Source of the DNA: Elusimicrobia bacterium RIFOXYB2_FULL_49_7
GTDB lineage: Bacteria > Fibrobacterota > OXYB2-FULL-49-7
Assembly (NCBI GenBank): GCA_001800515.1
Contig: MGVN01000253.1
Span: 1 to 20,752, forward strand
Direction of reading: 5' to 3'
Length of the DNA: 20,752 nt
The position numbers and the translations under genes are program-made. The notes under the pieces were generated by a model. The model did not search any database and was not told where the DNA came from. It was given only the letters and a program-made list of their open reading frames with translations. Below are positions 2 through 20,752 of the stretch, piece after piece (position 1 is the first letter of the stretch; the number at the start of each line of letters is the position of its first letter).

Positions 2-277
2 CAGGCATTTGCCCAGGTACAGAATTATCCAAACCCCTTCAATCCTTCCACCCTGATTCAGTATCGCATTGAAAACGGCGCCAAAGTCTCTCTCAAAATC
101 TTTAACGCCCTCGGCCATGAAGTGGCCTCCCTGGTCAACCGCGTACAGGAAGCGGGAAATTACAGCGTGACGTTCGATGCCGGCAATGAAAGCTCCGCTC
201 TCTCCAGCGGCATCTATTTCTGCCGTTTGCAAGTAGGCTCTTTTGTCTCGACAAATAAGTTGATTTTGGTCAGATAA
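2..277 (+). CDS. C-terminal 91 residues of a T9SS-secreted protein (5' end outside window)
   Basis: Frame 2 is open from the window edge to a TAA at 275-277. The fragment has the type A C-terminal sorting domain used by the type IX (Por) secretion system. YPNPFNPST lies at about fragment residues 9-17, followed by a VSLKIFNALGHEV strand, an AGNYSVTFDA strand, SGIYFCRLQVG, and a short basic end (LILVR). In this family the domain directs a protein across the outer membrane and is removed or anchored there. The function of the missing N-terminal part cannot be known. The YPNPFNPST wording is typical of Ignavibacteria, Calditrichota, KSB1 and related FCB lineages, and it is the best taxonomic clue in the window. 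No terminator is visible before the next gene, 22 bases downstream. Confidence 0.9.
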   Translation, partial: QAFAQVQNYPNPFNPSTLIQYRIENGAKVSLKIFNALGHEVASLVNRVQEAGNYSVTFDAGNESSALSSGIYFCRLQVGSFVSTNKLILVR

Positions 278-6379: not shown

Positions 6380-8663
<2,284 letters not shown>

Positions 8664-8664
<1 letters not shown>

Positions 8665-9053
8665 TGCATCTTAAAATACTTCTCCCCTTTCAGGTGTTTG
8701 CCAATATCACCGATGTCTCCCGTATCGTAGCGGAAAGCGGTCTCGGTTCCTTTGGACTCCTGCCGCATCGGCTGGACTGTGTGGCCGCATTGGTGCCGGC
8801 CATTCTTCTGTATGAAAGCGACGCGGAGGGAGAAGTCTTTATCGCCATAGATGAAGGGGTGCTGATTAAAACCGGACCGGAAATCCTTATTTCCGTGCGG
8901 CATGCTGTCCGCGGAAGCGATCTGGGCCAATTACAAGAGACCGTGGAAAAAGAATTTCTCACCTTAAATGAACGGGAAAAGAGCGCCCAATCGGTCATTG
9001 CAAAAATGGAAAGCGGTTTCATCCATCGATTGGCGACCTTTTATCATGAATAA
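8664..9053 (+). CDS. atpC: N-ATPase subunit epsilon
   Basis: 129 residues. It starts at the last base of the atpD stop (TGATG overlap). The N-terminal beta-sandwich is recognisable: LKILLPFQVFANITDVSRIVAE, GSFGLLPHRLDCVAALVPAILLYE (the epsilon GxFGILPxH signature, here GSFGLLPHR) and DEGVLIKTGPEILISV. A helical C-terminal part follows. The subunit belongs to the central stalk with gamma. In N-type operons the second position after atpD is atpC, as here. The last eight bases overlap atpQ. Confidence 0.93.
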
Positions 9054-9381
9054 ACACGACAACACCAAAAAAACCATAAAACCGCTCTCCTTCAGGCAAA
9101 CGATTGGTGCCAAGGCGGCCCGCAAGCTCAAGGCGCAACAGCAACCGGCACAGGGAATCTGGTTCGGGCTGGGCATGATGGGACTCATCGGCTGGTCGGT
9201 GACCCTTCCGACACTGCTCGGCGCCGTTGTCGGCATCTGGCTGGATCGCCGTGATCCGGGCCGATATTCGTGGACCCTGATGCTCCTTATCGTCGGCTTG
9301 GGGCTGGGCTGTGTGAATGCGTGGCATTGGGTCAGCAGACAGGACCGGGAAATGCGTAAAGGAAATGGTGATGAAAAATGA
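9046..9381 (+). CDS. atpQ: N-ATPase accessory membrane protein AtpQ (AtpI-like)
   Basis: 111 residues from ATG 9046, which overlaps the atpC stop by eight bases. The longer open frame upstream lies entirely over atpC and was rejected. A basic N-terminal region (about 1-35) is followed by two hydrophobic hairpin helices, about 37-63 (GIWFGLGMMGLIGWSVTLP and on) and 75-95, joined by WLDRRDPGRYSW. This is the AtpI-like architecture of the first accessory gene in N-ATPase operons. AtpI-type proteins are linked to c-ring assembly or divalent cation transport. The specific role of AtpQ is not established. Confidence 0.88.
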   Translation: MNKHDNTKKTIKPLSFRQTIGAKAARKLKAQQQPAQGIWFGLGMMGLIGWSVTLPTLLGAVVGIWLDRRDPGRYSWTLMLLIVGLGLGCVNAWHWVSRQDREMRKGNGDEK

Positions 9382-9665
9382 ATGACACAATAGCCATGAT
9401 CATCGCATTATTAACCGGCGTTTTGCTGGGCGTTGTTTTCTTCGGCGGCTTGTGGTGGACGCTTCAGAAGATCCTGCCAACCCGCCATTCGACCCTCTGG
9501 TTTTTGGCCAGCCTGATACTGCGCACCAGTGTCGTTCTGACCGGCTTTTATGTTGCAGGACATAATCACTTTGAAAATATGCTGATGTGCCTGCTGGGAT
9601 TTCTCCTGGCACGCTTTATTGTAACACGGTTGACCCGATTGTCTGGAGCCACCCATGCGTCTTAG
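9378..9665 (+). CDS. atpR: N-ATPase accessory membrane protein AtpR
   Basis: 95 residues, beginning in an ATGA overlap with atpQ. Three hydrophobic helices are visible: GVLLGVVFFGGLWWTLQKIL at about 14-33, LWFLASLILRTSVVLTGFYV at about 40-59, and MLMCLLGFLLARFIVTRL at about 68-85. Membrane-embedded Arg49 in helix 2, in the SLILRTSVVLTGFY context, is the hallmark reported for AtpR. It was proposed that this Arg could interact with the c-subunit carboxylates. Arg79 in helix 3 is also in a hydrophobic setting. AtpR is found only with N-type ATPases, so it is the most diagnostic gene of this operon. The gene overlaps atpB by 11 bases. Confidence 0.9.
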   Translation: MNDTIAMIIALLTGVLLGVVFFGGLWWTLQKILPTRHSTLWFLASLILRTSVVLTGFYVAGHNHFENMLMCLLGFLLARFIVTRLTRLSGATHAS

Positions 9666-10329
9666 TCCGGATGAAATCATTTTCTGGAAACAAGGGTTTC
9701 TGAAACTCAATGCCACCATTGTTTTCACCTGGGTACTGATGCTGGTCATGGGGGTGGGTTCAAAGCTCATCACACGCCACCTTTCCTCCGAGAAGACCCG
9801 TTCCCGCTGGCAGAATCTGCTCGGCATGATTGTGACCTCCCTTCTTTCGCAAATCGAAGAAGTGGGCCTGCCCGATCCGCGGAAGTATCTCCATTTCCTG
9901 GGCACCCTCTTTTTATTTGTGGCCATGGCCAGCCTGTCCACGCTGATTCCCGGCTTCGAACCGCCAACGGGTTCCCTGTCCACCTCCACCGCCCTGGCTC
10001 TCTGCGTCTTTGTGGCGGTCCCCTTTTTCGGTATCCGGGAACAGGGCGTAATGCCCTATCTCAAATCCTATCTGAAGCCCACCTTCATCATGCTGCCCTT
10101 CAACATCATCAGTGAAATATCCCGCACCCTGGCGCTGGCGGTACGGCTTTTCGGAAACATGATGAGCGGCGCCATGATTATCGGCATTCTGCTCACCATT
10201 ACCCCGCTTCTCTTTCCGCTGATCATGACCTCGCTCGGTCTGCTGACCGGCATGGTGCAGGCGTATATTTTCAGTATTCTGGCCGCGGTTTACATCGCCG
10301 CTGCGACACGGATTCATCAACCCAATTAA
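9655..10329 (+). CDS. atpB: N-ATPase subunit a
   Basis: 224 residues, short and typical for N-type a subunits. It contains the essential stator arginine, Arg164, in RTLALAVRLFGNMMSG, and the matching Gln202 in MVQAYIFSILAAVYI. The N-terminal part has a hydrophobic helix (TIVFTWVLMLVMGVGSKLI) and a conserved helix starting NLLGMIVTSLLSQIEEVG. It forms the ion half-channels facing the c-ring. The ATG lies 11 bases inside the end of atpR, so translation is coupled. The assignment is certain; the ion carried is discussed with the c subunit. Confidence 0.95.
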   Translation: MRLSPDEIIFWKQGFLKLNATIVFTWVLMLVMGVGSKLITRHLSSEKTRSRWQNLLGMIVTSLLSQIEEVGLPDPRKYLHFLGTLFLFVAMASLSTLIPGFEPPTGSLSTSTALALCVFVAVPFFGIREQGVMPYLKSYLKPTFIMLPFNIISEISRTLALAVRLFGNMMSGAMIIGILLTITPLLFPLIMTSLGLLTGMVQAYIFSILAAVYIAAATRIHQPN

Positions 10330-10342
10330 CCAGGAGTATTCT

Positions 10343-10624
10343 ATGGACAGCATGACAATCATGGGTGTAACCTCCATTGCGATTGCCGGCATCACCACCG
10401 GCTTTGGAACCATGGGACCTGCGCTGGCGGAAGGACGGGCCGTGGCCACGGCGCTGACCTCACTGGCCCAACAGCCCGATGCCTCGGCCACCATCACCCG
10501 AACCCTCTTTGTGGGACTCGCCATGATTGAATCCACGGCCATCTACTGCTTTGTGGTGTCAATGATTCTCATTTTCGCCAATCCCTTCTGGAATCATGTC
10601 ATTGCCCAGGCCGGAGGAAAGTGA
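10343..10624 (+). CDS. atpE: N-ATPase subunit c (rotor ring), two-carboxylate type
   Basis: 93 residues forming a two-helix hairpin with loop AQQPDA at about 42-47. Helix 1 holds GPALAEGRA with Glu30; helix 2 holds GLAMIESTAIY with the ion-binding Glu63, then Ser64, Thr65 and Tyr68. Glu30 and Glu63 are 33 residues apart, the same spacing as the Gln and Glu ligands of the Ilyobacter tartaricus Na+ site, so Glu replaces Gln there. It has the strongest ribosome-binding site of the operon (AGGAG, 10332-10336) and a 13-base leader gap. That suits a subunit needed in many copies per complex. The E-EST-Y motif is the N-type signature. Confidence 0.95.
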   Translation: MDSMTIMGVTSIAIAGITTGFGTMGPALAEGRAVATALTSLAQQPDASATITRTLFVGLAMIESTAIYCFVVSMILIFANPFWNHVIAQAGGK

Positions 10625-10627
10625 CCC

Positions 10628-11395
10628 ATGCTCATTGACTGGTTCACGGTTATCGCACAGGCGATTAATTTTATCATTCTGGTATGGCTGATGAAGCGCT
10701 TTCTGTATCACCCCATTCTCCATGCCATTGATGAGCGGGAAAAACGGATTGCCGCCGAACTGGCCGATGCGGAAGCCAAAAAAGCGGGCGCTGAAAAAGA
10801 GAGCAATGAATTCAGACGGAAAAATGAGGACTTTGACAAAGAACGGGCCTCTCTGTTAAGCCGGGCAACGGATGAAGCGGATACGGAACGGAAACGATTA
10901 ATCGGTGAAGCACAGAAAGCCGCCGATACCTTGAGTGCGCAGAGAGCGGAAGCATTTAAGAACGACGCGATTCAACTCCGTCAGGCCATCACCCAAAAAA
11001 CACAGCAAGCGGTATTCAGCATCACCAGAAAGGCGCTGACAGACCTGGCCGGTACGAGTCTTGAGGAGCAGTTGGTCAAGGTCTTTTCCCGCCGTTTGCA
11101 GGAAATGGATTCCGCAGCCAAGGAGTCTCTTTCCGGCGCGTTGAAAGACGGTTCTGAACCCGCCCTGATACGCACCGCCTTTGACCTACCGGAAGCGCAG
11201 CGTTCAATCCTTCAAACGGTTGTCAATGAAACCTTCCAGTCGGCCATTCCCCTTCGTTTCGAAACCGCACCGGACCTGACCGCCGGAATCGAACTGCTGA
11301 CTCAGGGACAGAAATTGGCATGGACTATTTCGGAATATCTTGTCTCAATGCAAAAGAACCTGTCGGACTCGGCTCCTAAAACAAAAGACGAATAA
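10628..11395 (+). CDS. atpF: N-ATPase subunit b with delta-like C-terminus
   Basis: 255 residues, roughly 100 longer than a standard b subunit. One transmembrane helix lies at about 5-24 (WFTVIAQAINFIILVWLMKR), followed by the conserved FLYHPILHAIDEREKRI and a long charged coiled coil to about residue 135. Residues about 175-242 look like the C-terminal half of a delta subunit: LRFETAPDLTAGIELLTQGQ aligns in pattern with the delta KVxxxxDxSLxGGxxIxxG block, followed by SEYLVSM. No separate atpH gene is present, so this protein probably serves as both peripheral stalk and head connector. That role is inference from pattern and gene absence. Confidence 0.92.
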   Translation: MLIDWFTVIAQAINFIILVWLMKRFLYHPILHAIDEREKRIAAELADAEAKKAGAEKESNEFRRKNEDFDKERASLLSRATDEADTERKRLIGEAQKAADTLSAQRAEAFKNDAIQLRQAITQKTQQAVFSITRKALTDLAGTSLEEQLVKVFSRRLQEMDSAAKESLSGALKDGSEPALIRTAFDLPEAQRSILQTVVNETFQSAIPLRFETAPDLTAGIELLTQGQKLAWTISEYLVSMQKNLSDSAPKTKDE

Positions 11396-11397
11396 TC

Positions 11398-12951
11398 ATG
11401 GAACCCGAAACGCTTCAGACCATCACCGATGGCGCATTCACCGCCCTCGGTCACCATCTTGACGCCTTTTCCCCGAACCTGATGCCGCAGGAGGTGGGTT
11501 TCATCCTGAATGTTTCCACCGGCATCGCCACGGTGTCCGGCCTGCCGGGCGTGGGTTTTGATGAACTGCTCTCCTTTCCCGGCGGTGTACTGGGGATTGC
11601 ATTCAATGTGGATGACGACAGCGTCGGTGTGGTGCTTCTCGGTAATTACTGGAATCTCCACGCAGGGGATGAAGTACGGCGCACCGGCCGGGTCATGGAA
11701 GTGGCCGTTGGCAATGAATTGCTGGGACGGGTCATCAACCCGCTCAGTCAGCCGCTCGATGGCAAAGGGCCCCTATCGGCCCTGTATCGTCTGCCTATTG
11801 AGCAACCCTCTCCGCCCATCATGGATCGTGCACCGGTCTCTGTGCCGCTGCAAACCGGCATCAAAGTCATTGATGCGCTCATCCCCGTGGGCCGCGGCCA
11901 GCGGGAACTGATTCTCGGTGACCGTCAGACCGGTAAAACCGCCATTGCCATCGATACGATTATCAATCAGCGCGACCAGAATGTGGTATGTGTCTATTGC
12001 GCTATCGGTCAACGCGCCTCGGCCGTGGCCAAAGTGGTCGCCACCTTGCAGAAAGAAGGGGCCATGGCCCACACGGTGGTGGTAGTGACCGAAGGCAATG
12101 ACCCGCCGGGCCTATCCTATATTGCCCCCTATGCCGCAACCCGCATTGCGGAATGGTTCATGGAAGCGGGCCGGGATGTGCTCATCGTCTATGACGACCT
12201 CACCCGGCATGCACGCGCCTATCGTGAACTATCGCTGCTGCTCCGCCGTCCGCCCGGTCGTGAAGCCTTTCCGGGAGACATTTTTTATATTCACTCCCGA
12301 CTGCTTGAACGGGCAACCCACCTCTCCCAGGAAAAAGGCAACGGTTCCCTGACCGCCCTTCCGATCATCGAAACAGAATCGCAGGATATGTCCGCCTATA
12401 TTCCCACTAATCTGATTTCCATCACGGATGGGCAGATATATCTGTCGCCCACCCTTTTTGAACTTGGCATTTTGCCGGCAGTAGATGTGGGAAAATCCGT
12501 TTCCCGCGTGGGGGGCAAGGCGCAACGGGCGGCCTATCGCGCCGTCGCCGGGGCGCTCAAACTCAGCTACGCCCAATTTGAAGAGCTCGAAACGTTCTCC
12601 CGATTCGGCGCCCGCCTGGATGACGCCTCCCGTCAAACCATCGATCATGGAAAACGGATTCGTGCCTGCCTGAAACAACCGCAGTTCAGTCCGGTCTCTG
12701 TGCCCGCACAAATCTCGGTACTGCTGGCCTTAACAGCCAACCTGTTCGACCCGGTTCCCCTGGAACGGATGACAGAAGCGGAGCAAGCGGTACAGAAGGC
12801 CGCTTCGACCATCCCGGCCGACCTGTTGACCCGGCTTCAAACAGAGACCAAAATGAATGACGAAGATCGCAAACTCATTACAGAAATCACCCGCCAGGCG
12901 CTTGTGCCCTTTTTGCCCATAGAAAAACAGCCGCCTGAACCAAAATCATGA
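11398..12951 (+). CDS. atpA: N-ATPase subunit alpha
   Basis: 517 residues. The nucleotide-binding domain carries Walker A GDRQTGKT at 174-181, the Walker B strand VLIVYDDL at 261-268, and the conserved IETESQDMSAYIPTNLISITDGQIYL block. The arginine finger is Arg370 in KSVSRVGGKAQ, which reaches into the beta catalytic site. The N-terminus (METPxTLQ-like region, about residues 1-30) is the part expected to contact the peripheral stalk. The start lies two bases after the atpF stop. The last four bases overlap atpG in an ATGA arrangement. All motifs are intact, so an active complex is expected. Confidence 0.96.
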   Translation: MEPETLQTITDGAFTALGHHLDAFSPNLMPQEVGFILNVSTGIATVSGLPGVGFDELLSFPGGVLGIAFNVDDDSVGVVLLGNYWNLHAGDEVRRTGRVMEVAVGNELLGRVINPLSQPLDGKGPLSALYRLPIEQPSPPIMDRAPVSVPLQTGIKVIDALIPVGRGQRELILGDRQTGKTAIAIDTIINQRDQNVVCVYCAIGQRASAVAKVVATLQKEGAMAHTVVVVTEGNDPPGLSYIAPYAATRIAEWFMEAGRDVLIVYDDLTRHARAYRELSLLLRRPPGREAFPGDIFYIHSRLLERATHLSQEKGNGSLTALPIIETESQDMSAYIPTNLISITDGQIYLSPTLFELGILPAVDVGKSVSRVGGKAQRAAYRAVAGALKLSYAQFEELETFSRFGARLDDASRQTIDHGKRIRACLKQPQFSPVSVPAQISVLLALTANLFDPVPLERMTEAEQAVQKAASTIPADLLTRLQTETKMNDEDRKLITEITRQALVPFLPIEKQPPEPKS

Positions 12952-13856
12952 GCAGCACACTGACCGATCTAAGGCGGAAAATCGGCGGGGCCGGGGATCT
13001 GGAATCCGTGGTGCGAACCATGAAAGCCGTGGCCGCCTCCAATATCAGTCAATACGAAAACTCGGTGCGTGCACTGAAAGACTATACCCGCTCCGTGGAA
13101 CTGGGGCTCTCGGTCTGCTTTCGGGAGAACGGTTTTGCCCCGCAGACACAGAAAAAAGAAAAACAGACTGAAACAAAAAAGATCGACATCCTCGTTTTCG
13201 GCTCTGATCAAGGATTGGTCGGCCGGTTTAATGATATCATCGCTGATGAAACAATCAAAAAGATCGAGACGCTTCCGGGACAACCCACCCTATGGGCTGT
13301 CGGCGAACGCCTTCATACCTGCCTGACCAGTGCGGATCTGACACCTTCCGGTTGCTTCGCCGTACCCAATTCCATCAAAGCCATCACACCGCTGGTGGGA
13401 CAGATTCTGCTTGAAATCGAGCAACATGACAACCCTGAAACAATCGCCGAACTGCACCTGCTTTATAACCGCGCCACCTCCGGTGCCATTTTCGAACCTT
13501 ATTATCAGCAACTGCTGCCCTTAGATGAAAGCTGGCACCGCCGCCTCATCGACCTTTCCTGGCCCACCCACCACCCTCCCGATATCATGGGCGGCCATGA
13601 AGCAACCTTACGAGCACTTATCCGGGAATACCTCTTCATCTCCCTTTTTAAGGCCATGGCGGAATCCCTTGCCGCTGAAAATGCAAGCCGTCTGGCCGCC
13701 ATGCAACGGGCGGACAAAAATATCGGCGAATTGCTGGATGAACTCCGAAAAAACTTCAGCCGTGTACGACATAGCCGTATGGATGAGGAATTGTTTGATG
13801 TCATTGCCGGATTCGAAGCACTGAAGAATCCTCCCCATTCATTCTCCCGAAAATAA
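12948..13856 (+). CDS. atpG: N-ATPase subunit gamma
   Basis: 302 residues. The N-terminal coiled-coil helix (LTDLRRKIGGAGDLESVVRTMKAVAASNI) and the C-terminal helix (ENASRLAAMQRADKNIGELL and on to about residue 290) are the two halves of the rotor shaft. Between them lies the Rossmann-like body with DILVFGSDQGLVGRFND. The N-terminal QIT.AM motif of housekeeping gamma is changed to SVVRTMKAVA, a diverged form expected of N-type subunits. It is the last gene of the operon. The next 190 bases hold no gene until 14047. Confidence 0.93.
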   Translation: MSSTLTDLRRKIGGAGDLESVVRTMKAVAASNISQYENSVRALKDYTRSVELGLSVCFRENGFAPQTQKKEKQTETKKIDILVFGSDQGLVGRFNDIIADETIKKIETLPGQPTLWAVGERLHTCLTSADLTPSGCFAVPNSIKAITPLVGQILLEIEQHDNPETIAELHLLYNRATSGAIFEPYYQQLLPLDESWHRRLIDLSWPTHHPPDIMGGHEATLRALIREYLFISLFKAMAESLAAENASRLAAMQRADKNIGELLDELRKNFSRVRHSRMDEELFDVIAGFEALKNPPHSFSRK

Positions 13857-13967
13857 CCCGTTATTATTATCAGTAATTGATTCCAATAAACGATAAAATC
13901 TGCTGCACTCTAAAATCCTGACCCGTTTTTCCGCCCAATTCATCCCCTATTGGTTCATTTGTAAACC

Positions 13968-13981
13968 GGCATTCTTATTGC
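13968..13981 (+). promoter_or_regulatory. Sigma-54 (-24/-12) promoter upstream of the lmo0937-like gene
   Basis: GGCATTCTTATTGC has the invariant GG (13968-13969) and GC (13980-13981) separated by exactly ten bases, and it closely follows the GGCAc...TTGC consensus recognised by RpoN. It ends 65 bases before the ATG at 14047, room for a short leader. Two almost identical elements occur in this window, at 17082-17095 and 19097-19110. Sigma-54 promoters need an enhancer-binding activator; no convincing activator site was found in the 13857-13967 stretch, which is otherwise AT-rich noncoding sequence after atpG. Confidence 0.78.
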
Positions 13982-14046
13982 TTGGTAGCTTATGAAGAGT
14001 GGAAGTTCATTCCATTTCTCAAAACATTCAATAAAGGATGCTTACG

Positions 14047-14196
14047 ATGCTGTACACGATTGCCGCCGTTCTGACCATTATGTGGCTTCTCGGATTGATT
14101 ACCTCCTACACCATGGGCGGCTTCATCCACATATTACTGGTTGTCGCCCTTGTTTTTCTCCTCGTCAGATTCATTCGCGGAAAAAACCTCGTCTAA
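14047..14196 (+). CDS. Small lmo0937-family (DUF5670-like) membrane peptide
   Basis: 49 residues: MLYTIAAVLTIMWLLGLITS, then YTMGGFIHILLVVALVFLLV and a short basic end (RFIRGKNLV). The two hydrophobic helices joined by TSYTMGGFIH match the lmo0937 family of tiny membrane proteins, which are widespread in bacteria and often found with envelope or osmotic stress genes. AAGGA at 14034-14038, eight bases before ATG 14047, is a good ribosome-binding site. A sigma-54-type promoter lies just upstream. The molecular role of the family is unknown. A longer open frame beginning at 13992 on the same strand has no such homology and is a shadow. Confidence 0.85.
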   Translation: MLYTIAAVLTIMWLLGLITSYTMGGFIHILLVVALVFLLVRFIRGKNLV

Positions 14197-14230
14197 CACG
14201 ACTCTTACTTAAATAATCGGAGATTCCAAC

Positions 14231-14758
14231 ATGAAAAAAACATTTTTAGCCTATATCACTTTTATTCTCATCTGTTCCACGGTGACAACATTTGCACAGC
14301 AACGCCGATTCGGATTGGGCGTTATTCTGGGAGAGCCGACCGGACTTTCCGCAAAACTCTTCGTTTCCCCCACCACGGCCTATGATTTCGGTCTGGGATG
14401 GTCCATGGGCGGGGACCGGATAGATCATTATGATGGCCGATATGATGGCGGAAGTCGCGTCCACTTCCACATGGATTATCTGTGGCATTGGTTTGACGCC
14501 ATTCGCGCCTCTGAACCGCTTCCACTCTATACCGGTATCGGTGCACGTATCAATACAGGCGCCGGGTATGACAACTCCGCCGGACTCCGCGGCGTATTCG
14601 GTATTGCCTGGATGCCCCATCTGCCGCCAATCGATATCTTTTTAGAATTAGTTCCGACCTTACAGGTGATACCGTCAACCGGTTTCGGCATGGATGCGGG
14701 TCTTGGAATACGGTACTTTTTCGGTTCTTCGGCGGTTCAAATGCGTCCTAAGGCGTAA
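14231..14758 (+). CDS. Small outer-membrane beta-barrel protein, BAPKO_0422-like
   Basis: 175 residues. A signal peptide (MKKTFLAYITFILICSTVTTFA) ends with likely cleavage after Ala22. The mature part begins RRFGLGVILGEPTGLSAKLFVSP, then FGLGWS, FHMDYLWHWF, LPLYTGIGARI, FGIAWMPHLPPIDIFLELVPTLQVIPSTGFGMDAGLGIRYFF. These short Gly/aromatic strands and the terminal aromatic (YFF) indicate an eight-strand-like barrel of the group named after Borrelia BAPKO_0422. Substrate and function are unknown. The gene follows the lmo0937-like gene by 34 bases and precedes an RNB ribonuclease by 16 bases, so it probably belongs to the transcript from the promoter at 13968. Confidence 0.82.
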   Translation: MKKTFLAYITFILICSTVTTFAQQRRFGLGVILGEPTGLSAKLFVSPTTAYDFGLGWSMGGDRIDHYDGRYDGGSRVHFHMDYLWHWFDAIRASEPLPLYTGIGARINTGAGYDNSAGLRGVFGIAWMPHLPPIDIFLELVPTLQVIPSTGFGMDAGLGIRYFFGSSAVQMRPKA

Positions 14759-14774
14759 AGAAAAGGAATCTGGC

Positions 14775-16250
14775 ATGACCGATATCCGTGATGGACAGCA
14801 CCGCGCCTTTCTGCAAAAGATCGCAAAGCAAGTCATGGCGAACCGGGGATTTCTGCCGGAAATTCCCTATCAAGCCATTGCAGAGCTGAATAGATATCTT
14901 GAGAAAAATCCGATCAATGGAACCGCTGTCCGCGATCTGGTACATCTTCCCTGGTGTTCCATTGATAATGATGCCTCACTTGATTTGGATCAGCTGACCG
15001 TGGCCGAGATCGTTCCCGGCAACAAGATTAAAATTCTCGTGGCTGTTTCAGATGTCGCTCTTTTCGTGAAAAGACATTCAGGGATAGATGACTATGCAGA
15101 ACACAATACCACCTCCGTCTATACCGGCGCCAAAGTCTTTCCCATGCTGCCGGAAAAACTGTCAACCGACCTTTCCTCTCTGAATTATGGCGCCGACCGC
15201 TACGCCCTGATCACTGAAATGGTTTTTGATGAACAGGGCCTGCTGAACAGCTCCGATCTTTATACCGCCCGCGTCAACAACCATGCCAAACTGGCTTACG
15301 CCGTTGTAGGAGCATGGCTCGCGGGAAATGGACCCTTGCCGCAAGACATCAAAGCCATAGGGGGGCTTGAAGAAAATCTGCACATTCAATCGCGCATGGC
15401 GCAACAGCTCAAATCCCTTCGCCACGAACAAGGTGCGCTCAGTCTGGAAACCCTGGAAGCGAATCCGGTATTTGAAGGCAATACCCTTAAAACTCTGGAA
15501 GCGGTTGAAAAAAACCGAGCGACCGAGATCATTGAAGAATTCATGATTGCCGCAAACAGCGTGGCCGCCCAATTCCTGACATTAAATAAAATCCCCGCGC
15601 TCAGACGAATCGTGCGCACCCCTAAACGATGGGAGCGCATTGTGGAACTGGCCAAAGAGCGAGGCCATCTTTTGCCGGACCGTCCTGACGCGAAAGCGTT
15701 AAACGAATTCCTGACCCAGGCCAAAAGTGCGGACCCTTCTCTCTTTCCGGATCTCTCTCTTTCTGTCATCAAATTACTGGGCCCCGGAGAATATCAGGTG
15801 GAACGGCCGGGAAGTGCCGTGACCGGCCATTTCGGTCTGGCCCTGTCGGATTATACTCATGCCACGGCCCCTAACCGGCGCTTTCCGGATCTGGTGACAC
15901 AGCGGCTCATCAAAGCAGCGCTGGCCGGAGAAAACACTCCCTATACAATCGAAGAACTTTTAAAATTGGCAAAACACTGCACCGATAAAGCGGATGACGC
16001 CAAGAAGGTGGAAAGACAGCTGATCAAATCAGCGGCCGCCATGCTGCTGGAAAACAGAATCGGCGAACAATTCAATGCCATGGTCACAGGTGCCTCGGGC
16101 AAAGGAACCTGGGTCCGGGTGGCTTATCCGCCGGTCGAAGGAAGATTGGTTTCCGGATATGCCGGACTGGATGTGGGCAGACGGCTTCGCGTGCAATTGG
16201 TATATACCGACGTGGAGCGCGGCTTTATTGATTTCGCTTCCATGACATAA
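14775..16250 (+). CDS. RNB-domain (RNase II/R superfamily) ribonuclease
   Basis: 491 residues from ATG 14775, with AAAAGGA at 14761-14767. The frame is open to 14694, but that part overlaps the upstream barrel gene. The RNB core begins at about residue 50. The metal-binding block CSIDNDASLDLDQL supplies Asp64, Asp70 and Asp72, but the fourth acidic position is Gln73. The distal signature YTHATAPNRRFPDL (360-373) replaces the usual YTHFTSPIRRYPDL. A short S1-like segment may lie at 435-491. The N-terminal cold-shock domains of RNase II and R are missing, so this is a compact subfamily. The family degrades single-stranded RNA 3' to 5'. The stop overlaps the next start (TAATG). Confidence 0.88.
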   Translation: MTDIRDGQHRAFLQKIAKQVMANRGFLPEIPYQAIAELNRYLEKNPINGTAVRDLVHLPWCSIDNDASLDLDQLTVAEIVPGNKIKILVAVSDVALFVKRHSGIDDYAEHNTTSVYTGAKVFPMLPEKLSTDLSSLNYGADRYALITEMVFDEQGLLNSSDLYTARVNNHAKLAYAVVGAWLAGNGPLPQDIKAIGGLEENLHIQSRMAQQLKSLRHEQGALSLETLEANPVFEGNTLKTLEAVEKNRATEIIEEFMIAANSVAAQFLTLNKIPALRRIVRTPKRWERIVELAKERGHLLPDRPDAKALNEFLTQAKSADPSLFPDLSLSVIKLLGPGEYQVERPGSAVTGHFGLALSDYTHATAPNRRFPDLVTQRLIKAALAGENTPYTIEELLKLAKHCTDKADDAKKVERQLIKSAAAMLLENRIGEQFNAMVTGASGKGTWVRVAYPPVEGRLVSGYAGLDVGRRLRVQLVYTDVERGFIDFASMT

Positions 16251-16969
16251 TGCCATGCAAATGCTTTCTTTTCTTTTTCTGCTGTCTTCTTTTCCTGTCA
16301 TTATCCATCTCGGCAGGCCCAAACAAGAACAATCCCAAAAAGCATAAAAGCCGAACCCCTCAGAAAAGTCTGAAAAAGGTTCATTTATCTCTCGACTATG
16401 TCTACACGCCCATCACGCATAATAGCCCGGACACGCTTGCCCGGCTTCAAAAAGAGCCGGATGACCCATGGCAATCCACTCCCAATTTTCTGCTTTCCGT
16501 GTCCGCCTATCTGCATGGCAATATCGGGCTGGGTCTTTTTTATTCCAGATATATCTCCCATGTTTCTTTGGATGCCTATGCCGTTTCAATCGTGCAAAAA
16601 AACTTTCGCGGCCCTTATACGGAAAAGCTCTCCGTGAATTATTTCGGCCCTGTGATTGGCATTAAAAGCAGTGTCTGGGACAAATATCTAGTGTTCCATG
16701 CGGACATTCGCCCCGGACTAGTCCTTTTTTTTGACGACATCAGTTATTCCAATGTCATAAACAATTTTTCTTCGCCGGTCTTCGGCCTGGGCGGATCCCT
16801 CGGAATGGAATACAAACTGAAAAACAATTATGGAATCAGTCTGGACATCAATGGACTGTATGCCACTATCCGGAGTATGAAGGATGGAGAGGGCCATATC
16901 CGAATAATGGAAAGAGACATCAGCCGGGCTGACATCAACCTCGGATTCAGATATCATATCAGCCGATAA
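16250..16969 (+). CDS. Predicted outer-membrane beta-barrel protein, family not recognised
   Basis: 239 residues, starting at the last base of the RNB stop. A Cys/Phe-rich signal peptide (MPCKCFLFFFCCLLFLSLSISA) ends after Ala22, followed by a Lys/Asn-rich stretch to about residue 42. The remainder alternates in strands: VHLSLDYVYTPI, LLSVSAYLHGNIGLGLFYSRYI, VNYFGPVIGIKSSV, LVFHADIRPGLVLFF, FGLGGSLGMEYKL, YGISLDINGLYATI and NLGFRYHIS. This pattern indicates a periplasm-exposed barrel; no family can be named. The last 91 bases are duplicated downstream at 18893-18983, where the rest of the gene is missing. Confidence 0.75.
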   Translation: MPCKCFLFFFCCLLFLSLSISAGPNKNNPKKHKSRTPQKSLKKVHLSLDYVYTPITHNSPDTLARLQKEPDDPWQSTPNFLLSVSAYLHGNIGLGLFYSRYISHVSLDAYAVSIVQKNFRGPYTEKLSVNYFGPVIGIKSSVWDKYLVFHADIRPGLVLFFDDISYSNVINNFSSPVFGLGGSLGMEYKLKNNYGISLDINGLYATIRSMKDGEGHIRIMERDISRADINLGFRYHISR

Positions 16970-17096
16970 ACGCTTTCCCAACATCCTTGCTCTTCTCAAA
17001 AACAGCCATCGTCATTCTCGAAAGCGACAACGCCCGACATTGAAATCAGCGATAATTGAACGGAAAGGACATTACAACACGGGCATCCTTATTGCT
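16879..17096 (+). repeat. Direct repeat, copy 1 (barrel-gene tail plus sigma-54 promoter)
   Basis: This segment recurs at 18893-19111. The first 147 bases (to 17025) differ at only three positions by my alignment. The following roughly 55 bases are more diverged, and the last 15 or so, carrying the -24/-12 promoter, are identical again. Copy 1 covers the functional 3' end of the gene at 16250-16969, its stop codon and the whole intergenic leader. The net length difference between the copies is one base. Confidence 0.92.
17082..17095 (+). promoter_or_regulatory. Sigma-54 (-24/-12) promoter upstream of the PorT-like barrel gene
   Basis: GGCATCCTTATTGC, with GG at 17082-17083 and GC at 17094-17095 and ten bases between them. 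It ends 55 bases before the ATG chosen at 17151. The same 14 bases are found at 19097-19110 inside the second copy of the direct repeat, while the bases just upstream have drifted. That contrast suggests the element is under selection. Confidence 0.8.
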
Positions 17097-17150
17097 CTAC
17101 AGTCCCATAGGTGTAAAATTAAACAAACCGTCAGCGCCAAAGGAAATAAG

Positions 17151-17795
17151 ATGAAAAGAATATGTCTGATGATCGTGTCTGTTGTCCTGATGATTAACCT
17201 CAGCAGCGTACAAAGCAATGGGAATACTTTACGTGAAATACCTTTGCTCGGTATTAAAATCGGCACCAATATATCGAATGTGTATGATGCCAAGAACGAG
17301 GATTTCGATGCGGATTCCAAATTCGGTCTCGCGGCCGGGCTGTTTTTGGCTATACCCATCGGGAAATATATGGGCATTCAGCCTGAAATACTTTTTTCAC
17401 AGAAAGGTTTTCAGGCAACCGGACGCCTGCTGGGAATCTCTTATGAACTCACACGCACGACTAATTATATTGATGTCCCTCTCTTATTCGCACTGAAGCC
17501 CACCGGTTTTTTGACTGTCTTGGCAGGCCCGCAGTATTCCTTCCTGCTGAAGCAAAAGGATTCCTTTAAGAGCGACATTTCGACCGTTGATGTAGAAAAA
17601 GAATTCAATAATGAGAATATCCGCAAGAATACCCTCTGTTTCCTGGGCGGATTGGATCTCAATTTGGATCATCTTGTCATTGGCATCAGAACCGGATGGG
17701 ATATCCTGACGAATAACGGAGATGGGACATCGGTGACGCCCCGTTATAAAAATGTCTGGTATCAATTCACCGTTGGATACCGCTTTTATTACTAA
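17151..17795 (+). CDS. Outer-membrane beta-barrel protein, PorT-like (OMP_b-brl_2 type)
   Basis: 214 residues from ATG 17151, preceded by AAAGGA (17139-17144). The frame is open to 17040, but that extension would contain the promoter at 17082-17095 and lacks a signal peptide. From 17151 the protein starts with MKRICLMIVSVVLMINLSSV, a good signal peptide. The mature part has LLGIKIGTNISNVYD, FGLAAGLFLAIPIGKYMGIQPEILFSQKGF, YIDVPLLFALKPTG, LTVLAGPQYSFLL and a C-terminal FTVGYRFYY. The QPEILFSQKG and YIDVPLL motifs are typical of the Bacteroidota PorT-like barrel family. The role is unknown; PorT itself acts in type IX secretion, but most members are unassigned. Confidence 0.85.
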   Translation: MKRICLMIVSVVLMINLSSVQSNGNTLREIPLLGIKIGTNISNVYDAKNEDFDADSKFGLAAGLFLAIPIGKYMGIQPEILFSQKGFQATGRLLGISYELTRTTNYIDVPLLFALKPTGFLTVLAGPQYSFLLKQKDSFKSDISTVDVEKEFNNENIRKNTLCFLGGLDLNLDHLVIGIRTGWDILTNNGDGTSVTPRYKNVWYQFTVGYRFYY

Positions 17796-17798
17796 ATA

Positions 17799-18872
17799 GT
17801 GAAAATTCCGCTTTATGCCAAGATAACCGTATCTCTGGTCGGTCTCTTTGCCCTGGTCGCGATGTTATACATCGCCCAGGGCCTTATCATTCCCCTTGTT
17901 TTTGCGCTTATCATTGCCATGACCCTTCACCCGGTGGTGAAAATATTCAGCCGACTTGGCATCAACAGAATCGTGGCCATCAGCATCACTTTGTTAGTCA
18001 CCTTTCTGGTTATCGCCGCAATCGGGACGCTTCTGGTTTCACAGGCCAGCCAATTCAGCAAATCGTGGCCTTCGCTGGTCGATCGATCCGTTGCCCTGTT
18101 TAACCAGACGACCCTCTGGGCCTCCGGTTATTTCAGCATCGATCCGCTTACCATTCAGGAATGGCTTGTCAAAACAAAAGATGATTTCATCAGCAACGGC
18201 GGCACGACTCTCGGGCAAACCCTGCTCTCTTTAAGCAGCGGCATGATGGTATTGCTGTTAGTCCCGGTATATGTTTTCCTGATATTATTTTACCACCCGC
18301 TATTGCTTGAATTTACTCACCGCCTCTTTGAGAAAAGCAATCAAAACCAAGTGAAAGAAATCATCACACAGACCAAGTCCTTGATTCAACGCTATCTGAC
18401 CGGGCTGGTCATTGAAGCCGCTCTGGTGGCAACGCTCTACTTTATCACATTGAAACTATTCGGAATAGAATACGCCCTGCTGCTGGCCATCATCGGCGCG
18501 TTACTCAATGTCATTCCCTATGTCGGCGGCGTGGTGGGTGCAGCGCTGCCCATCATGGTCGCTCTGGCCACCCAATCAACGGGCTGGTACGCCCTGTATG
18601 TTCTCATCGCTTACTCTACCATTCAGATGATTGACAACAACATCATTGTTCCCAAAATAGTGGCCTCAAAGGTGAAAATCAATGCACTCTGTTCAGTCAT
18701 CGTAGTGATTGCCGGAAGCGCGCTTTGGGGCATTTCGGGTATGTTTCTGTCCATCCCGCTTTTAGCCATCATCAAGCTCATCGCCGACCATATCGAACCG
18801 TTGAAACCTTTCGGATTCCTGCTCGGGGTGCCCATTGTGGCGGCAAAGACGGAAAGCAGTGAAAAAAGCTAA
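17799..18872 (+). CDS. AI-2E family transporter (PerM/TqsA-like permease)
   Basis: 357 residues with about seven to eight hydrophobic segments. Recognisable blocks are GLIIPLVFALIIAMTLHPVV near the N-terminus, the central VPVYVFLILFYHP, FGIEYALLLAIIGALLNVIPYVGGVVGAALP and a C-terminal stretch with IPLLAIIKLIADHIEPLKP. The family includes exporters linked to autoinducer-2, sodium/proton exchange and osmotic stress, so the substrate cannot be named. The start is GTG at 17799, three bases after the stop of the barrel gene, without a clear ribosome-binding site; ATG 17862 is a weaker alternative because it would cut into the first helix. It is probably translated in coupling with the upstream gene. 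Confidence 0.88.
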   Translation: MKIPLYAKITVSLVGLFALVAMLYIAQGLIIPLVFALIIAMTLHPVVKIFSRLGINRIVAISITLLVTFLVIAAIGTLLVSQASQFSKSWPSLVDRSVALFNQTTLWASGYFSIDPLTIQEWLVKTKDDFISNGGTTLGQTLLSLSSGMMVLLLVPVYVFLILFYHPLLLEFTHRLFEKSNQNQVKEIITQTKSLIQRYLTGLVIEAALVATLYFITLKLFGIEYALLLAIIGALLNVIPYVGGVVGAALPIMVALATQSTGWYALYVLIAYSTIQMIDNNIIVPKIVASKVKINALCSVIVVIAGSALWGISGMFLSIPLLAIIKLIADHIEPLKPFGFLLGVPIVAAKTESSEKS

Positions 18873-18892
18873 TGTGAATTCAGACGGAAAAA

Positions 18893-18983
18893 GAAGGATG
18901 GAGAGGGCCATATCCGAATAATTGAAAGAGACATCAGCCGGGCTGACATCAACCTCGGATTCAGATATCATATCAGCCGATAA
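18893..18983 (+). pseudogene. 3'-end fragment of the barrel gene at 16250-16969
   Basis: The frame from about 18894 reads DGEGHIRIIERDISRADIN and on through LGFRYHISR to a TAA at 18981-18983. It is identical to the end of the protein encoded at 16250-16969 except for one Met-to-Ile change. No start codon, ribosome-binding site or upstream part of the gene is present. It is a non-functional duplicate carried within the direct repeat. Confidence 0.88.
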
Positions 18984-19096
18984 ACGCTTTCTCAACATCC
19001 TTTCTCTTCTCAAAAACAGCCATCGTCATTCTCGAAAGCAACAACTGCCGATATTGAAACCGGCGCTGATTGAACAAAAAAGCCCTTTGCAATACT

Positions 19097-19110
19097 GGCA
19101 TCCTTATTGC
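19097..19110 (+). promoter_or_regulatory. Sigma-54 (-24/-12) promoter upstream of the Ig-like lipoprotein gene
   Basis: GGCATCCTTATTGC preceded by T, giving TGGCA, the best match of the three to the RpoN consensus. GG is at 19097-19098 and GC at 19109-19110. The ATG at 19163 follows 52 bases later, a spacing similar to that of the other two promoters (55 and 65 bases). Confidence 0.8.
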
Positions 19111-19162
19111 TTGATGACCCTTGATGTGATGAATCTAAATCTTTGACAGGAGTAACTTTCTG

Positions 19163-20752
19163 ATGAACAAAATGACAAGTCCTTCTACAATGTGGCTGAT
19201 GCCGCTTCTACTTGTAATGGTCATGGTCGGCTGCGAAAGCCGCCTCGGCCTTACCTCTCCTGTGAACAGCACCACCCCTTCCGTGAGCGCAACCAATCCG
19301 GCGGATATGGAAACCGGCGTTGCTTTCAACAATCAAATCACCGCCACTTTCAGCGAAGTGATGGACTCATTAACGATGACCACCGCCACCTTTACCTTGA
19401 TGCAAGGAACCTCCTTTGTCTCCGGCACCGTTTCCTATACGGGTACCACAGCCACTTTTTCACCTTCCGGCAACCTCACCCCGAACACCGTTTACACGGC
19501 AACACTGACCACCGGAATTCATAACCTGGCGGGCAATTCGCTTGCCAACAACCATGTCTGGAGCTTTACGACCGGCGCCTCGGCCGCAGTCATTCCGCCC
19601 ACCGTCAGCTCAACGGATCCGCTGAATGCGGCAACGAATGTGCCGTTCAACCAGAAAATCGCCGTCACCTTCAGCAAAACCATGGATGCGGCAACCATCA
19701 CGACCTCGACCTTCACTTTGACACAGGGCACAACACCGATATCCGGTTTTGTCTCCTATTCCGGCACCACTGCGCTCTTTTCGCCAACCAGCAATCTGGC
19801 CGCCAACACCGCCTATACCGCAACGATCACCAGCGGCGCAAAAGATTTGGCAGGCAATGCGCTGGCCGCAAACTATATATTCAGTTTTATCACGGGTGCA
19901 GCAGCGGTCATCACCCCGCCGACCGTGAGCTTGACCGATCCGCTCAATAATGCAACGGGCGTGGCATTGAATCAGAAGATTGCCGCCACCTTCAGCAAAA
20001 CCATGAACGCATCCACCATCACCACCGCCACTTTTATATTACGGCAGGGAACGACCCCCATTCCGGGATTTATTTCTTATTCCGGCACCATGGCCATTTT
20101 TGCTCCGGCCGTTAATCTGGGCGCCAATACCGTTTATACCGCAACAATCACCACAGGTGTTGAAGATTTGGCGGCCAATGCATTAGCCGCAAACCACAGC
20201 TGGAGCTTTACCACCGGCGCAGCCGCGGTGGTCATCCCACCCACCGTCAGTCTGACGGATCCGCTTAATCTTGCCGTGGGTGTGGCATTGAATCAGAAAA
20301 TTGCCGCCACCTTCAGCAAAACCATGAATGCGTCCACCATCACCACCGCCACCTATATATTACGACAGGGCACCACCCCCATTCCGGGATTTATCTCCTA
20401 CTCCGGTACCACCGCCCTTTTTTCACCGGCCACCAATCTGACCGCAGCAACCGTCTATACCGCCACCCTGACAACCGGTGCCGAAGATCTGGCCGGAAAT
20501 GCATTAGCCGCAAACCATAGCTGGAACTTTACCACCGGTGCAGCAATCGTGGTGACCCCGCCTACCATCAACTCAACCGATCCAGTTGACATGGCTGTGG
20601 GTGTGGCTTTAAATCAGAAGATTTCCGCCACCTTCAGCAAAACCATGGATCCGGGCAGTCTGACCTCCGCGACCTTTACATTACAACAAGGAGCCACCTC
20701 GGTTTCAGGCTTTATCTCCTACTCCGGAATAACCGCCCTCTTTACCCCGGCA
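19163..20752 (+). CDS. Lipoprotein with tandem Ig-like (Big_5/SbsA-type) repeats, 3' end outside window
   Basis: 530 codons are visible and the frame is still open at the edge. AGGAG at 19148-19152 serves ATG 19163. The signal peptide ends VMVGC with acceptor Cys24; Met at lipobox position -3 is slightly unusual. After a Thr/Ser/Pro linker, units of 107 residues start at 19274, 19595, 19916, 20237 and 20558, the last incomplete. Each runs PPTVSxTDPLN...ATGVALNQKIAATFSKTM, then TTATFxLxQGTTPxxGFxSYSG, FSPxxNL, NTxYTATITTG and DLAGNALAANxxWSFTTG. This is the bacterial Ig-like Big_5 fold found in S-layer and large surface proteins. It is probably a long surface stalk or adhesin; the distal domain is unseen. 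Confidence 0.9.
   Translation, partial: MNKMTSPSTMWLMPLLLVMVMVGCESRLGLTSPVNSTTPSVSATNPADMETGVAFNNQITATFSEVMDSLTMTTATFTLMQGTSFVSGTVSYTGTTATFSPSGNLTPNTVYTATLTTGIHNLAGNSLANNHVWSFTTGASAAVIPPTVSSTDPLNAATNVPFNQKIAVTFSKTMDAATITTSTFTLTQGTTPISGFVSYSGTTALFSPTSNLAANTAYTATITSGAKDLAGNALAANYIFSFITGAAAVITPPTVSLTDPLNNATGVALNQKIAATFSKTMNASTITTATFILRQGTTPIPGFISYSGTMAIFAPAVNLGANTVYTATITTGVEDLAANALAANHSWSFTTGAAAVVIPPTVSLTDPLNLAVGVALNQKIAATFSKTMNASTITTATYILRQGTTPIPGFISYSGTTALFSPATNLTAATVYTATLTTGAEDLAGNALAANHSWNFTTGAAIVVTPPTINSTDPVDMAVGVALNQKISATFSKTMDPGSLTSATFTLQQGATSVSGFISYSGITALFTPA
19274..20752 (+). repeat. Tandem 321-base repeats encoding Ig-like domains
   Basis: Units begin at 19274, 19595, 19916, 20237 and 20558, exactly 321 bases apart without indels. 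Units 3 and 4 are the most alike at the DNA level, sharing long identical stretches (for example around 19970-20090 and 20290-20410). Unit 1 is the most diverged. The gradient suggests recent internal duplication or gene conversion toward the middle of the gene. The array continues beyond the window. Confidence 0.93.

What the first reader, a model, noticed from the sequence alone, without database searches (positions are those of the whole stretch)
13968..19110. Three near-identical sigma-54 promoters in one 5-kb region
At 13968, 17082 and 19097 the motif GGCAT(T/C)CTTATTGC appears with the exact GG-N10-GC spacing, always 52-65 bases before a start codon and always before an envelope gene (lmo0937-like peptide, PorT-like barrel, Ig-like lipoprotein). 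Even the spacer bases CTTATT are shared, which the generic consensus does not require. This points to a local RpoN regulon under one activator.
Basis: seen in the sequence. Interest (0 to 1): 0.7.

Follow-up and report, generated by a model that had tools for sequence, protein, structure and literature searches.

The report
Copied sigma-54 promoter with paired enhancer
Three look-alike switches sit in front of cell-envelope genes; two of them are copies of one another that kept both the switch and a matching upstream control site, which points to a shared, perhaps stress-type, control circuit in a poorly known group of bacteria.

Summary
The three motifs are real, at the stated places and spacings. 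They are not three independent sites: 17082 and 19097 close a direct duplication (16871-17096 / 18885-19111, 90%) that also carries the 3' end of an outer-membrane-protein gene. The window looks like Fibrobacterota near Ca. Raymondbacteria; rpoN is in 161 of 167 genomes of that phylum, but the window's own genome is not held. In the nearest relative (G167) a 23-kb contig with homologs of window genes has 6 sigma-54-like sites, 6 of 6 intergenic; a further 789 kb has 5 intergenic ones. A box, TTCTC[AG]NAA, stands upstream of 8 of 27 held-out intergenic sites, 0 of 21 coding ones and 9 of 418 background positions. A matrix from relatives alone puts its four best hits in the window on tandem boxes before 17082 and 19097. 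In the duplication core and first box are unchanged, the linker is 70%. Best reading: sigma-54 promoters with an activator site, part of an envelope/stress-type regulon; 17082 and 19097 share one activator. At 13968 the box is weak, so one activator for all three is unproven. No activator gene was found in the window; no expression data exist here.

The parts
13968..13981 (+). sigma-54-like core 1, GGCATTCTTATTGC, 65 nt before the DUF5670 start
17082..17095 (+). sigma-54-like core 2, GGCATCCTTATTGC, 55 nt before the PorT-like start
19097..19110 (+). sigma-54-like core 3, GGCATCCTTATTGC, 52 nt before the Big_5 start
16993..17010 (+). upstream box 1 of core 2 (TTCTCAAAAACAGCCATC), -89
   Evidence: score 15.5 with a matrix from relatives only, joint best of the window
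17015..17032 (+). upstream box 2 of core 2 (TTCTCGAAAGCGACAACG), -67, 22 bp from box 1
   Evidence: score 12.1, fourth of the window
19007..19024 (+). upstream box 1 of core 3, -90
   Evidence: score 15.5
19029..19046 (+). upstream box 2 of core 3, -68, 22 bp from box 1
   Evidence: score 13.6
13861..13898 (+). weak box-like pair upstream of core 1 (13861, 7.6; 13881, 8.1, at -107 and -87); doubtful
   Evidence: 22 of 400 shuffles reach the better score
16871..17096 (+). duplicated segment, copy A: 3' end of OMP gene, boxes, linker, core
18885..19111 (+). duplicated segment, copy B (the OMP tail here is a fragment)
14047..14196 (+). lmo0937/DUF5670 membrane peptide
   Evidence: PF18919 E 2.9e-15; NF033488
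14231..14758 (+). protein of unknown family, second gene after core 1; 75% to a G167 protein that also follows DUF5670
   Evidence: no Pfam or NCBIfam hit
16250..16969 (+). outer-membrane barrel-like gene whose 3' end is in the duplication
   Evidence: PF13505 E 6.4e-4, below cut-off
17151..17795 (+). PorT-like outer-membrane barrel
   Evidence: PF13568 E 1.1e-15
17799..18872 (+). AI-2E family transporter
   Evidence: PF01594 E 8.8e-58
19163..20752 (+). Big_5 repeat lipoprotein-like gene, runs off the window
   Evidence: PF13205 E 1.7e-108

Best explanation
The motifs are -24/-12 promoters of the sigma-54 (RpoN) holoenzyme. At -89/-67 of core 2 and -90/-68 of core 3 lie two direct copies of a box (TTCTC[AG]NAA), 22 bp or about two helix turns apart, where a bacterial enhancer-binding protein would sit and drive open-complex formation by looping (inferred). 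The same box plus core stands before envelope and stress-type genes in related Fibrobacterota, so the window genes belong to a regulon of that kind. Cores 2 and 3 descend from one promoter-plus-enhancer segment copied together with the 3' end of the upstream OMP gene; the copy now stands before the Big_5 lipoprotein gene. Core 1 stands before the lmo0937-type peptide and its neighbour; whether it answers to the same activator is open. Shown: sequence, duplication, enrichment, conservation pattern. Inferred: binding, activation, stress signal.
For: rpoN in 161 of 167 genomes of the phylum, nearest relative G167 included. G167 contig C103, which carries the best OmpA homolog, has 6 GG[CT]A[CT]N5TTGC sites, 6 of 6 intergenic, 34-84 nt before starts of BON, small membrane peptide plus OMP16250 homolog, LapA, OmpA, STAS-MlaE and one unnamed gene; elsewhere in G167, 8 of 22 sites in 311 kb and 5 of 47 in 788,910 bases are intergenic. 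Box in -150..-35: held-out intergenic sites 8 of 27, coding sites 0 of 21, promoter-like background 9 of 418 (Fisher 1e-6). TTCTCA plus core over 167 genomes: 149 hits against 44 for the reversed pattern (my sums). Matrix from relatives only: the top four window hits are the two tandem pairs. Duplication: core 15/15, box 1 18/18, box 2 16/18, linker 35/50, after the core 12/30.
Against: The window's own genome is not held, so rpoN there is inferred. In the further 789 kb of G167 the matrix (score 10 or more) finds a box before 0 of 5 intergenic sites, 1 of 42 coding sites and 2 of 25 reversed-pattern controls; 44 of its 45 hits of 12 or more lie away from a core, so the box alone is not specific. 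Core 1 has only a weak box. Of 26 DUF5670 loci in 17 related genomes 1 has such a core within 300 nt, and of 30 OmpA loci 1 has a strong one. The 98.9% identity of the OMP tail is not explained by an enhancer and suggests recent copying or gene conversion. The box was found among ten upstream regions that included those of 13968 and 17082; only the matrix leaves the window out.
Confidence: 0.75

Rival explanations
1. The cores are sigma-54 promoters, but 13968 answers to another activator than 17082/19097; the local cluster is due to one duplication and to sigma-54's general leaning to envelope genes.
For: Weak box upstream of 13968, 22 of 400 shuffles; two of three sites are one copy; G167 has 31 matches to the activator domain, 27 of them strong.
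Against: 13968 shares the CTTATT spacer, seen in 1 of 159 TGGCAYN5TTGCT sites of 13 related genomes, and its weak boxes lie at a like distance, -87.
Confidence: 0.4
2. The motif is a passively repeated sequence: an old duplication plus one chance match, no promoter function.
For: Two of three copies are within a duplication whose coding tail is 98.9% alike.
Against: Core unchanged between a 70% linker and 40% downstream (P about 0.005 at the linker's rate); sites before homologous genes in G167; box found by a matrix from relatives.
Confidence: 0.1
3. The motif is the binding site of another factor (another sigma factor or a repressor), not of sigma-54.
For: AT-rich TTATTG stretch shared beyond the consensus; no transcript data.
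Against: GG-N10-GC, GGCA and TTGC all fit; the same class of site stands before flagellin-like and flagellar-rod-like genes in G167 (names by eye), classical sigma-54 targets (recalled).
Confidence: 0.07

Closest known systems
Sigma-54 (RpoN) promoters with upstream activator sites and enhancer-binding proteins
   Same: GG-N10-GC core, box 67-90 bp upstream of cores 2 and 3; [quoted passage not shown]
   Different: The box TTCTC[AG]NAA matches no activator motif that I can recall; the activator is not identified
Sigma-54 as controller of the bacterial exterior (Francke et al. 2011, PMC3162934, passages)
   Same: Envelope genes as targets; sigma-54 almost absolutely conserved in diderm species with a lipopolysaccharide outer membrane
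   Different: Its main text has 0 occurrences of 'fibrobacter'; the gene set here includes general-stress-type families (BON, CsbD, Hsp20, lmo0937)
SigB general stress regulon of Listeria (lmo0937; PMC2813243 and PMC7690807, passages)
   Same: lmo0937 is listed among sigma-B-dependent genes
   Different: There by sigma-B; here a sigma-54-like core
PspF and ZraR-type envelope-stress activators (recalled); DVU1419 and DVU3381 of D. vulgaris (PMC4641369, passages)
   Same: Sigma-54 activators for envelope stress
   Different: Other target genes; no Pfam hit named for psp or zra among the 24 window proteins scanned

Membership tests
sigma-54 promoter | GG-N10-GC with GGCA and TTGC | tested here: met
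   3 of 3 sites
sigma-54 promoter | full consensus TGGCAC-N5-TTGCW (recalled) | tested here: inconclusive
   T before GG only at 19097; all three have T for C after GGCA
sigma-54 promoter | rpoN in the genome | not testable with these tools
   own genome not held; 161 of 167 relatives have it
sigma-54 promoter | transcript start about 12 nt after GC | not testable with these tools
   no transcript data
sigma-54 promoter with upstream activator site | conserved activator box upstream of the core | tested here: met
   17082 and 19097: top four matrix hits of the window
sigma-54 promoter with upstream activator site | same box upstream of 13968 | tested here: inconclusive
   best 8.1, 22 of 400 shuffles
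local regulon under one activator | activator gene next to the targets | tested here: not met
   no Sigma54_activat hit in the 24 window proteins scanned; in G167 none of 31 matches on C103, C100, C26, C107, C92
local regulon under one activator | three independent sites | tested here: not met
   two are one duplication
general stress regulon | induction by stress | not testable with these tools
   gene families only

The most novel reading that the evidence does not exclude
Larger-genome Fibrobacterota run an envelope/general-stress regulon (OmpA, BON, PRC, CsbD, LapA, Mla, AI-2E, Hsp20, rubrerythrin, lmo0937 peptide) from sigma-54 instead of a sigma-B/RpoS-type factor, through one enhancer-binding protein that reads tandem TTCTCA boxes; new genes, including an outer-membrane barrel of Bacteroidota type, are recruited by copying a promoter-plus-enhancer cassette.
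Probability: 0.4. Interest if true: 0.68.

Novelty: new member of a known kind. Interest (0 to 1): 0.5.

Why it matters
I know of little work on control of gene expression in Fibrobacterota (recalled; one listing for Fibrobacteres with rpoN, shows none on it). A defined core-plus-box grammar makes the regulon searchable in every genome of the phylum and the activator findable. If stress-type genes hang on sigma-54 there, it is an alternative to the sigma-B/RpoS solution. The duplication shows how a promoter and its enhancer can be moved together to a new gene.

Tried and rejected
Loci of the RNase-II-like gene (29 loci): in the 12 loci printed, neighbours not shared except a Big_5-like match in L001; sigma-54-like sites in the 29 loci near chance (8 seen, about 7.8 expected with the window included). 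Exact GGCAYNCTTATTGC in 167 genomes: 45 hits, 35 for the reversed control by my count; 0 in G167, so the spacer is not a phylum-wide signature. GGCAYNNTTATTGC in 12 genomes: G167 8 against 7 control, but 3 of its 8 on the 23-kb contig C103. DUF5670 and OmpA upstream regions across the phylum: core present in 1 of 26 and, strongly, in 1 of 30. Plasmid search: no match. Rfam: no match at gathering score. Shared words between the upstream regions of 13968 and 17082: at null level. Inverted-repeat enhancer: some relatives show TTCTCAN4TGAGAA (by eye), the window does not. A further 789 kb of G167 gave no box before an intergenic core (0 of 5).

The search for the OMP16250 gene in the phylum did not complete and was not done. 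Papers: searches gave listings with abstract starts only; passages were read. I did not search print for the TTCTCA box, so its novelty is not tested.

Full report
Observation. The motif GGCATNCTTATTGC is present exactly three times, all on the + strand, at 13968, 17082 and 19097. With up to two mismatches 4 matches are found against a shuffle mean of 0.54, and 0 of 100 shuffles reach 4. GC-to-start distances are 65, 55 and 52. By my gene calls the sites lie in the only three gaps above 100 bp between genes of the window.

The copies are not independent. The segment 16871-17096 recurs at 18885-19111. It holds the last part of the OMP gene 16250-16969, the intergenic stretch and the core; the aligned similarity stops at the base after the core. 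Along the copy, the OMP tail is 98.9% alike (90 of 91), box 1 18 of 18, box 2 16 of 18, the linker 70% (35 of 50), the core 15 of 15, and the 30 bases after it 40%. The core is thus kept inside diverged DNA (P about 0.005 for no change in 15 at the linker's rate). The coding tail is also kept although it is a fragment in copy B; a recent copy or gene conversion explains this better than function does. I therefore count two independent observations.

Organism. No genome is held for the window. The OmpA protein is 67% identical to one named Ca. Raymondbacteria, 64% to one named Elusimicrobia and 62% to one named Fibrobacterota (names given by the sources). Of these, G167 has the best OmpA match, 67% over residues 3-357; its fetched contigs also encode homologs of BON (67%), DUF5670 (69%), the 14231 protein (75%), OMP16250 (55%), PRC and BrkB. 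The PorT-like gene is different: best match in that phylum 43% over part of its length, but 59-67% among the other 119 of 120 proteins listed, of which 12 carry an organism name, all Bacteroidota (Catalinimonas by recall). I infer horizontal origin.

Sigma-54. Sigma54_DBD is in 161 of 167 of these genomes, G167 included. TGGCAYN5TTGCT is found 10 times in G167 against 2 for the reversed pattern; among these are sites 86 nt before a flagellin-like gene (by eye) and 59 nt before an OmpA gene. In 12 further genomes, which I chose, it is more frequent than its reverse in 12 of 12 (149 against 58). On G167 contig C103 (23,419 bases) the looser GG[CT]A[CT]N5TTGC occurs 6 times, 6 of 6 intergenic, 34-84 nt before starts: BON, a small membrane peptide followed by the OMP16250 homolog, LapA, OmpA, a STAS-MlaE permease and an unnamed protein. 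Three of the six carry TTATTGC. Elsewhere in G167, 8 of 22 sites are intergenic in 311 kb of contigs C15, C26, C107 and part of C23, and 5 of 47 in a further 788,910 bases, among them the flagellin-like gene. Several of those contigs were known to me from earlier pattern hits, so this is not a random sample; the bias favours sites there.

Enhancer box. Counting words upstream of ten such sites, window sites 13968 and 17082 among them, showed TTCTCATAA/TTATGAGAA in 4 of 10, against a shuffle maximum of 2 or 3 in 40 shuffles; two of the sites share one divergent region. The box TTCTC[AG]NAA lies mostly at about -65 to -121. With the box as fixed, 8 of 27 intergenic cores outside the finding set have it within -150..-35, against 0 of 21 coding cores and 9 of 418 promoter-like positions (Fisher 1e-6). 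Over 167 genomes TTCTCA-N72..102-GGCAYN5TTGC gives 149 hits against 44 for the reverse: 64 against 12 in G001-G040, 73 against 30 in G041-G153, 12 against 2 in G154-G167, and 7 against 0 in G167 alone (my sums). By eye, many of the hits in G041-G153 are homologous coding copies. Among 31 sites checked from the 30 loci of that search, 13 were intergenic.

Window boxes. A matrix made of 14 boxes from G167, G023 and G024, none from the window, gives as its four best hits in the whole window the pairs at 16993/17015 and 19007/19029 (15.5, 12.1, 15.5, 13.6; next 8.6), at -89/-67 and -90/-68, 22 bp apart. A like tandem is seen at G167 C100 (-102/-79, 23 bp). Caution: hits of 12 or more occur 45 times in 789 kb of G167, 44 of them away from cores, and boxes of score 10 or more precede 0 of 5 intergenic cores, 1 of 42 coding cores and 2 of 25 reversed controls there. 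By that rate one box of 12 or more near a core has a chance of about 0.7% per region, the pair far less. For 13968 the best box scores 8.1 at -87, reached by 22 of 400 shuffles.

Genes. Sites with core and box in relatives precede STAS-MlaE, OmpA, LapA and a small peptide with the OMP16250 homolog (G167 C103), AI-2E (G167 C26, start 189 nt on), Hsp20 and rubrerythrin (G024 C160), a protein of no Pfam family (G023 C70) and, 254 nt on, a PRC-barrel gene (G023 C47); a YgaP-like membrane gene (G024 C160) has TTCTCA but not the full box. Cores without the box precede CsbD, BON, a homolog of the 2703 gene, lmo0937 and small proteins of no Pfam family. The window carries AI-2E, PRC, BON, OmpA, Mla, BrkB and lmo0937 genes itself. 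lmo0937 of Listeria is listed as sigma-B dependent. So the set looks like an envelope/general-stress regulon. Against conservation: of 26 DUF5670 loci in 17 genomes 1 has the core, of 30 OmpA loci 1 has a strong one; the box-free cores mean that a single activator for the whole set is not shown.

Activator. None of 24 window proteins scanned hits Sigma54_activat. G167 has 31 matches, 27 strong, none on C103, C100, C26, C107 or C92 (the family also rings in all 14 control genomes, so weak matches mean little). The activator is unknown.

Verdict. Sigma-54 promoters with a shared enhancer for 17082 and 19097: likely. One activator for all three: possible. The mechanism is of a known kind; the regulon and its box look new to me, but I did not search print for the box.

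Noticed in passing
window 7162-13856: Run of N-type ATPase genes including AtpQ-like (PF09527) and AtpR genes just before the first motif.
   Followed up: no
window 14775-16250: RNase-II-like gene whose 54-62% relatives sit in eight MAGs of seven labels, about six phyla (L001-L008); scattered transfer or misbinning.
   Followed up: partly
window 17151-17795: PorT-like barrel closest to proteins named Bacteroidota and without a close relative in 167 Fibrobacterota genomes.
   Followed up: partly
window 2-274: C-terminal type IX secretion sorting domain (Por_Secre_tail) at the window's start.
   Followed up: no
window 19431-20693: Four copies of a Big_5 repeat at 321-bp spacing, 67-72% alike to the first.
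   Followed up: no
L265; G036:C117:154133; G038:C43:12986: TTCTCA boxes with another right half (TTCTCAN4TGCAAAA, by eye) before sigma-54-like cores; L265 precedes a BON-like gene (by eye). L258 has a TTCTCA box and core before a GroES-like gene (by eye).
   Followed up: partly
L235:4751-5984 (G024:C160): Divergent Hsp20 and rubrerythrin genes, each with its own sigma-54-like core and box.
   Followed up: partly
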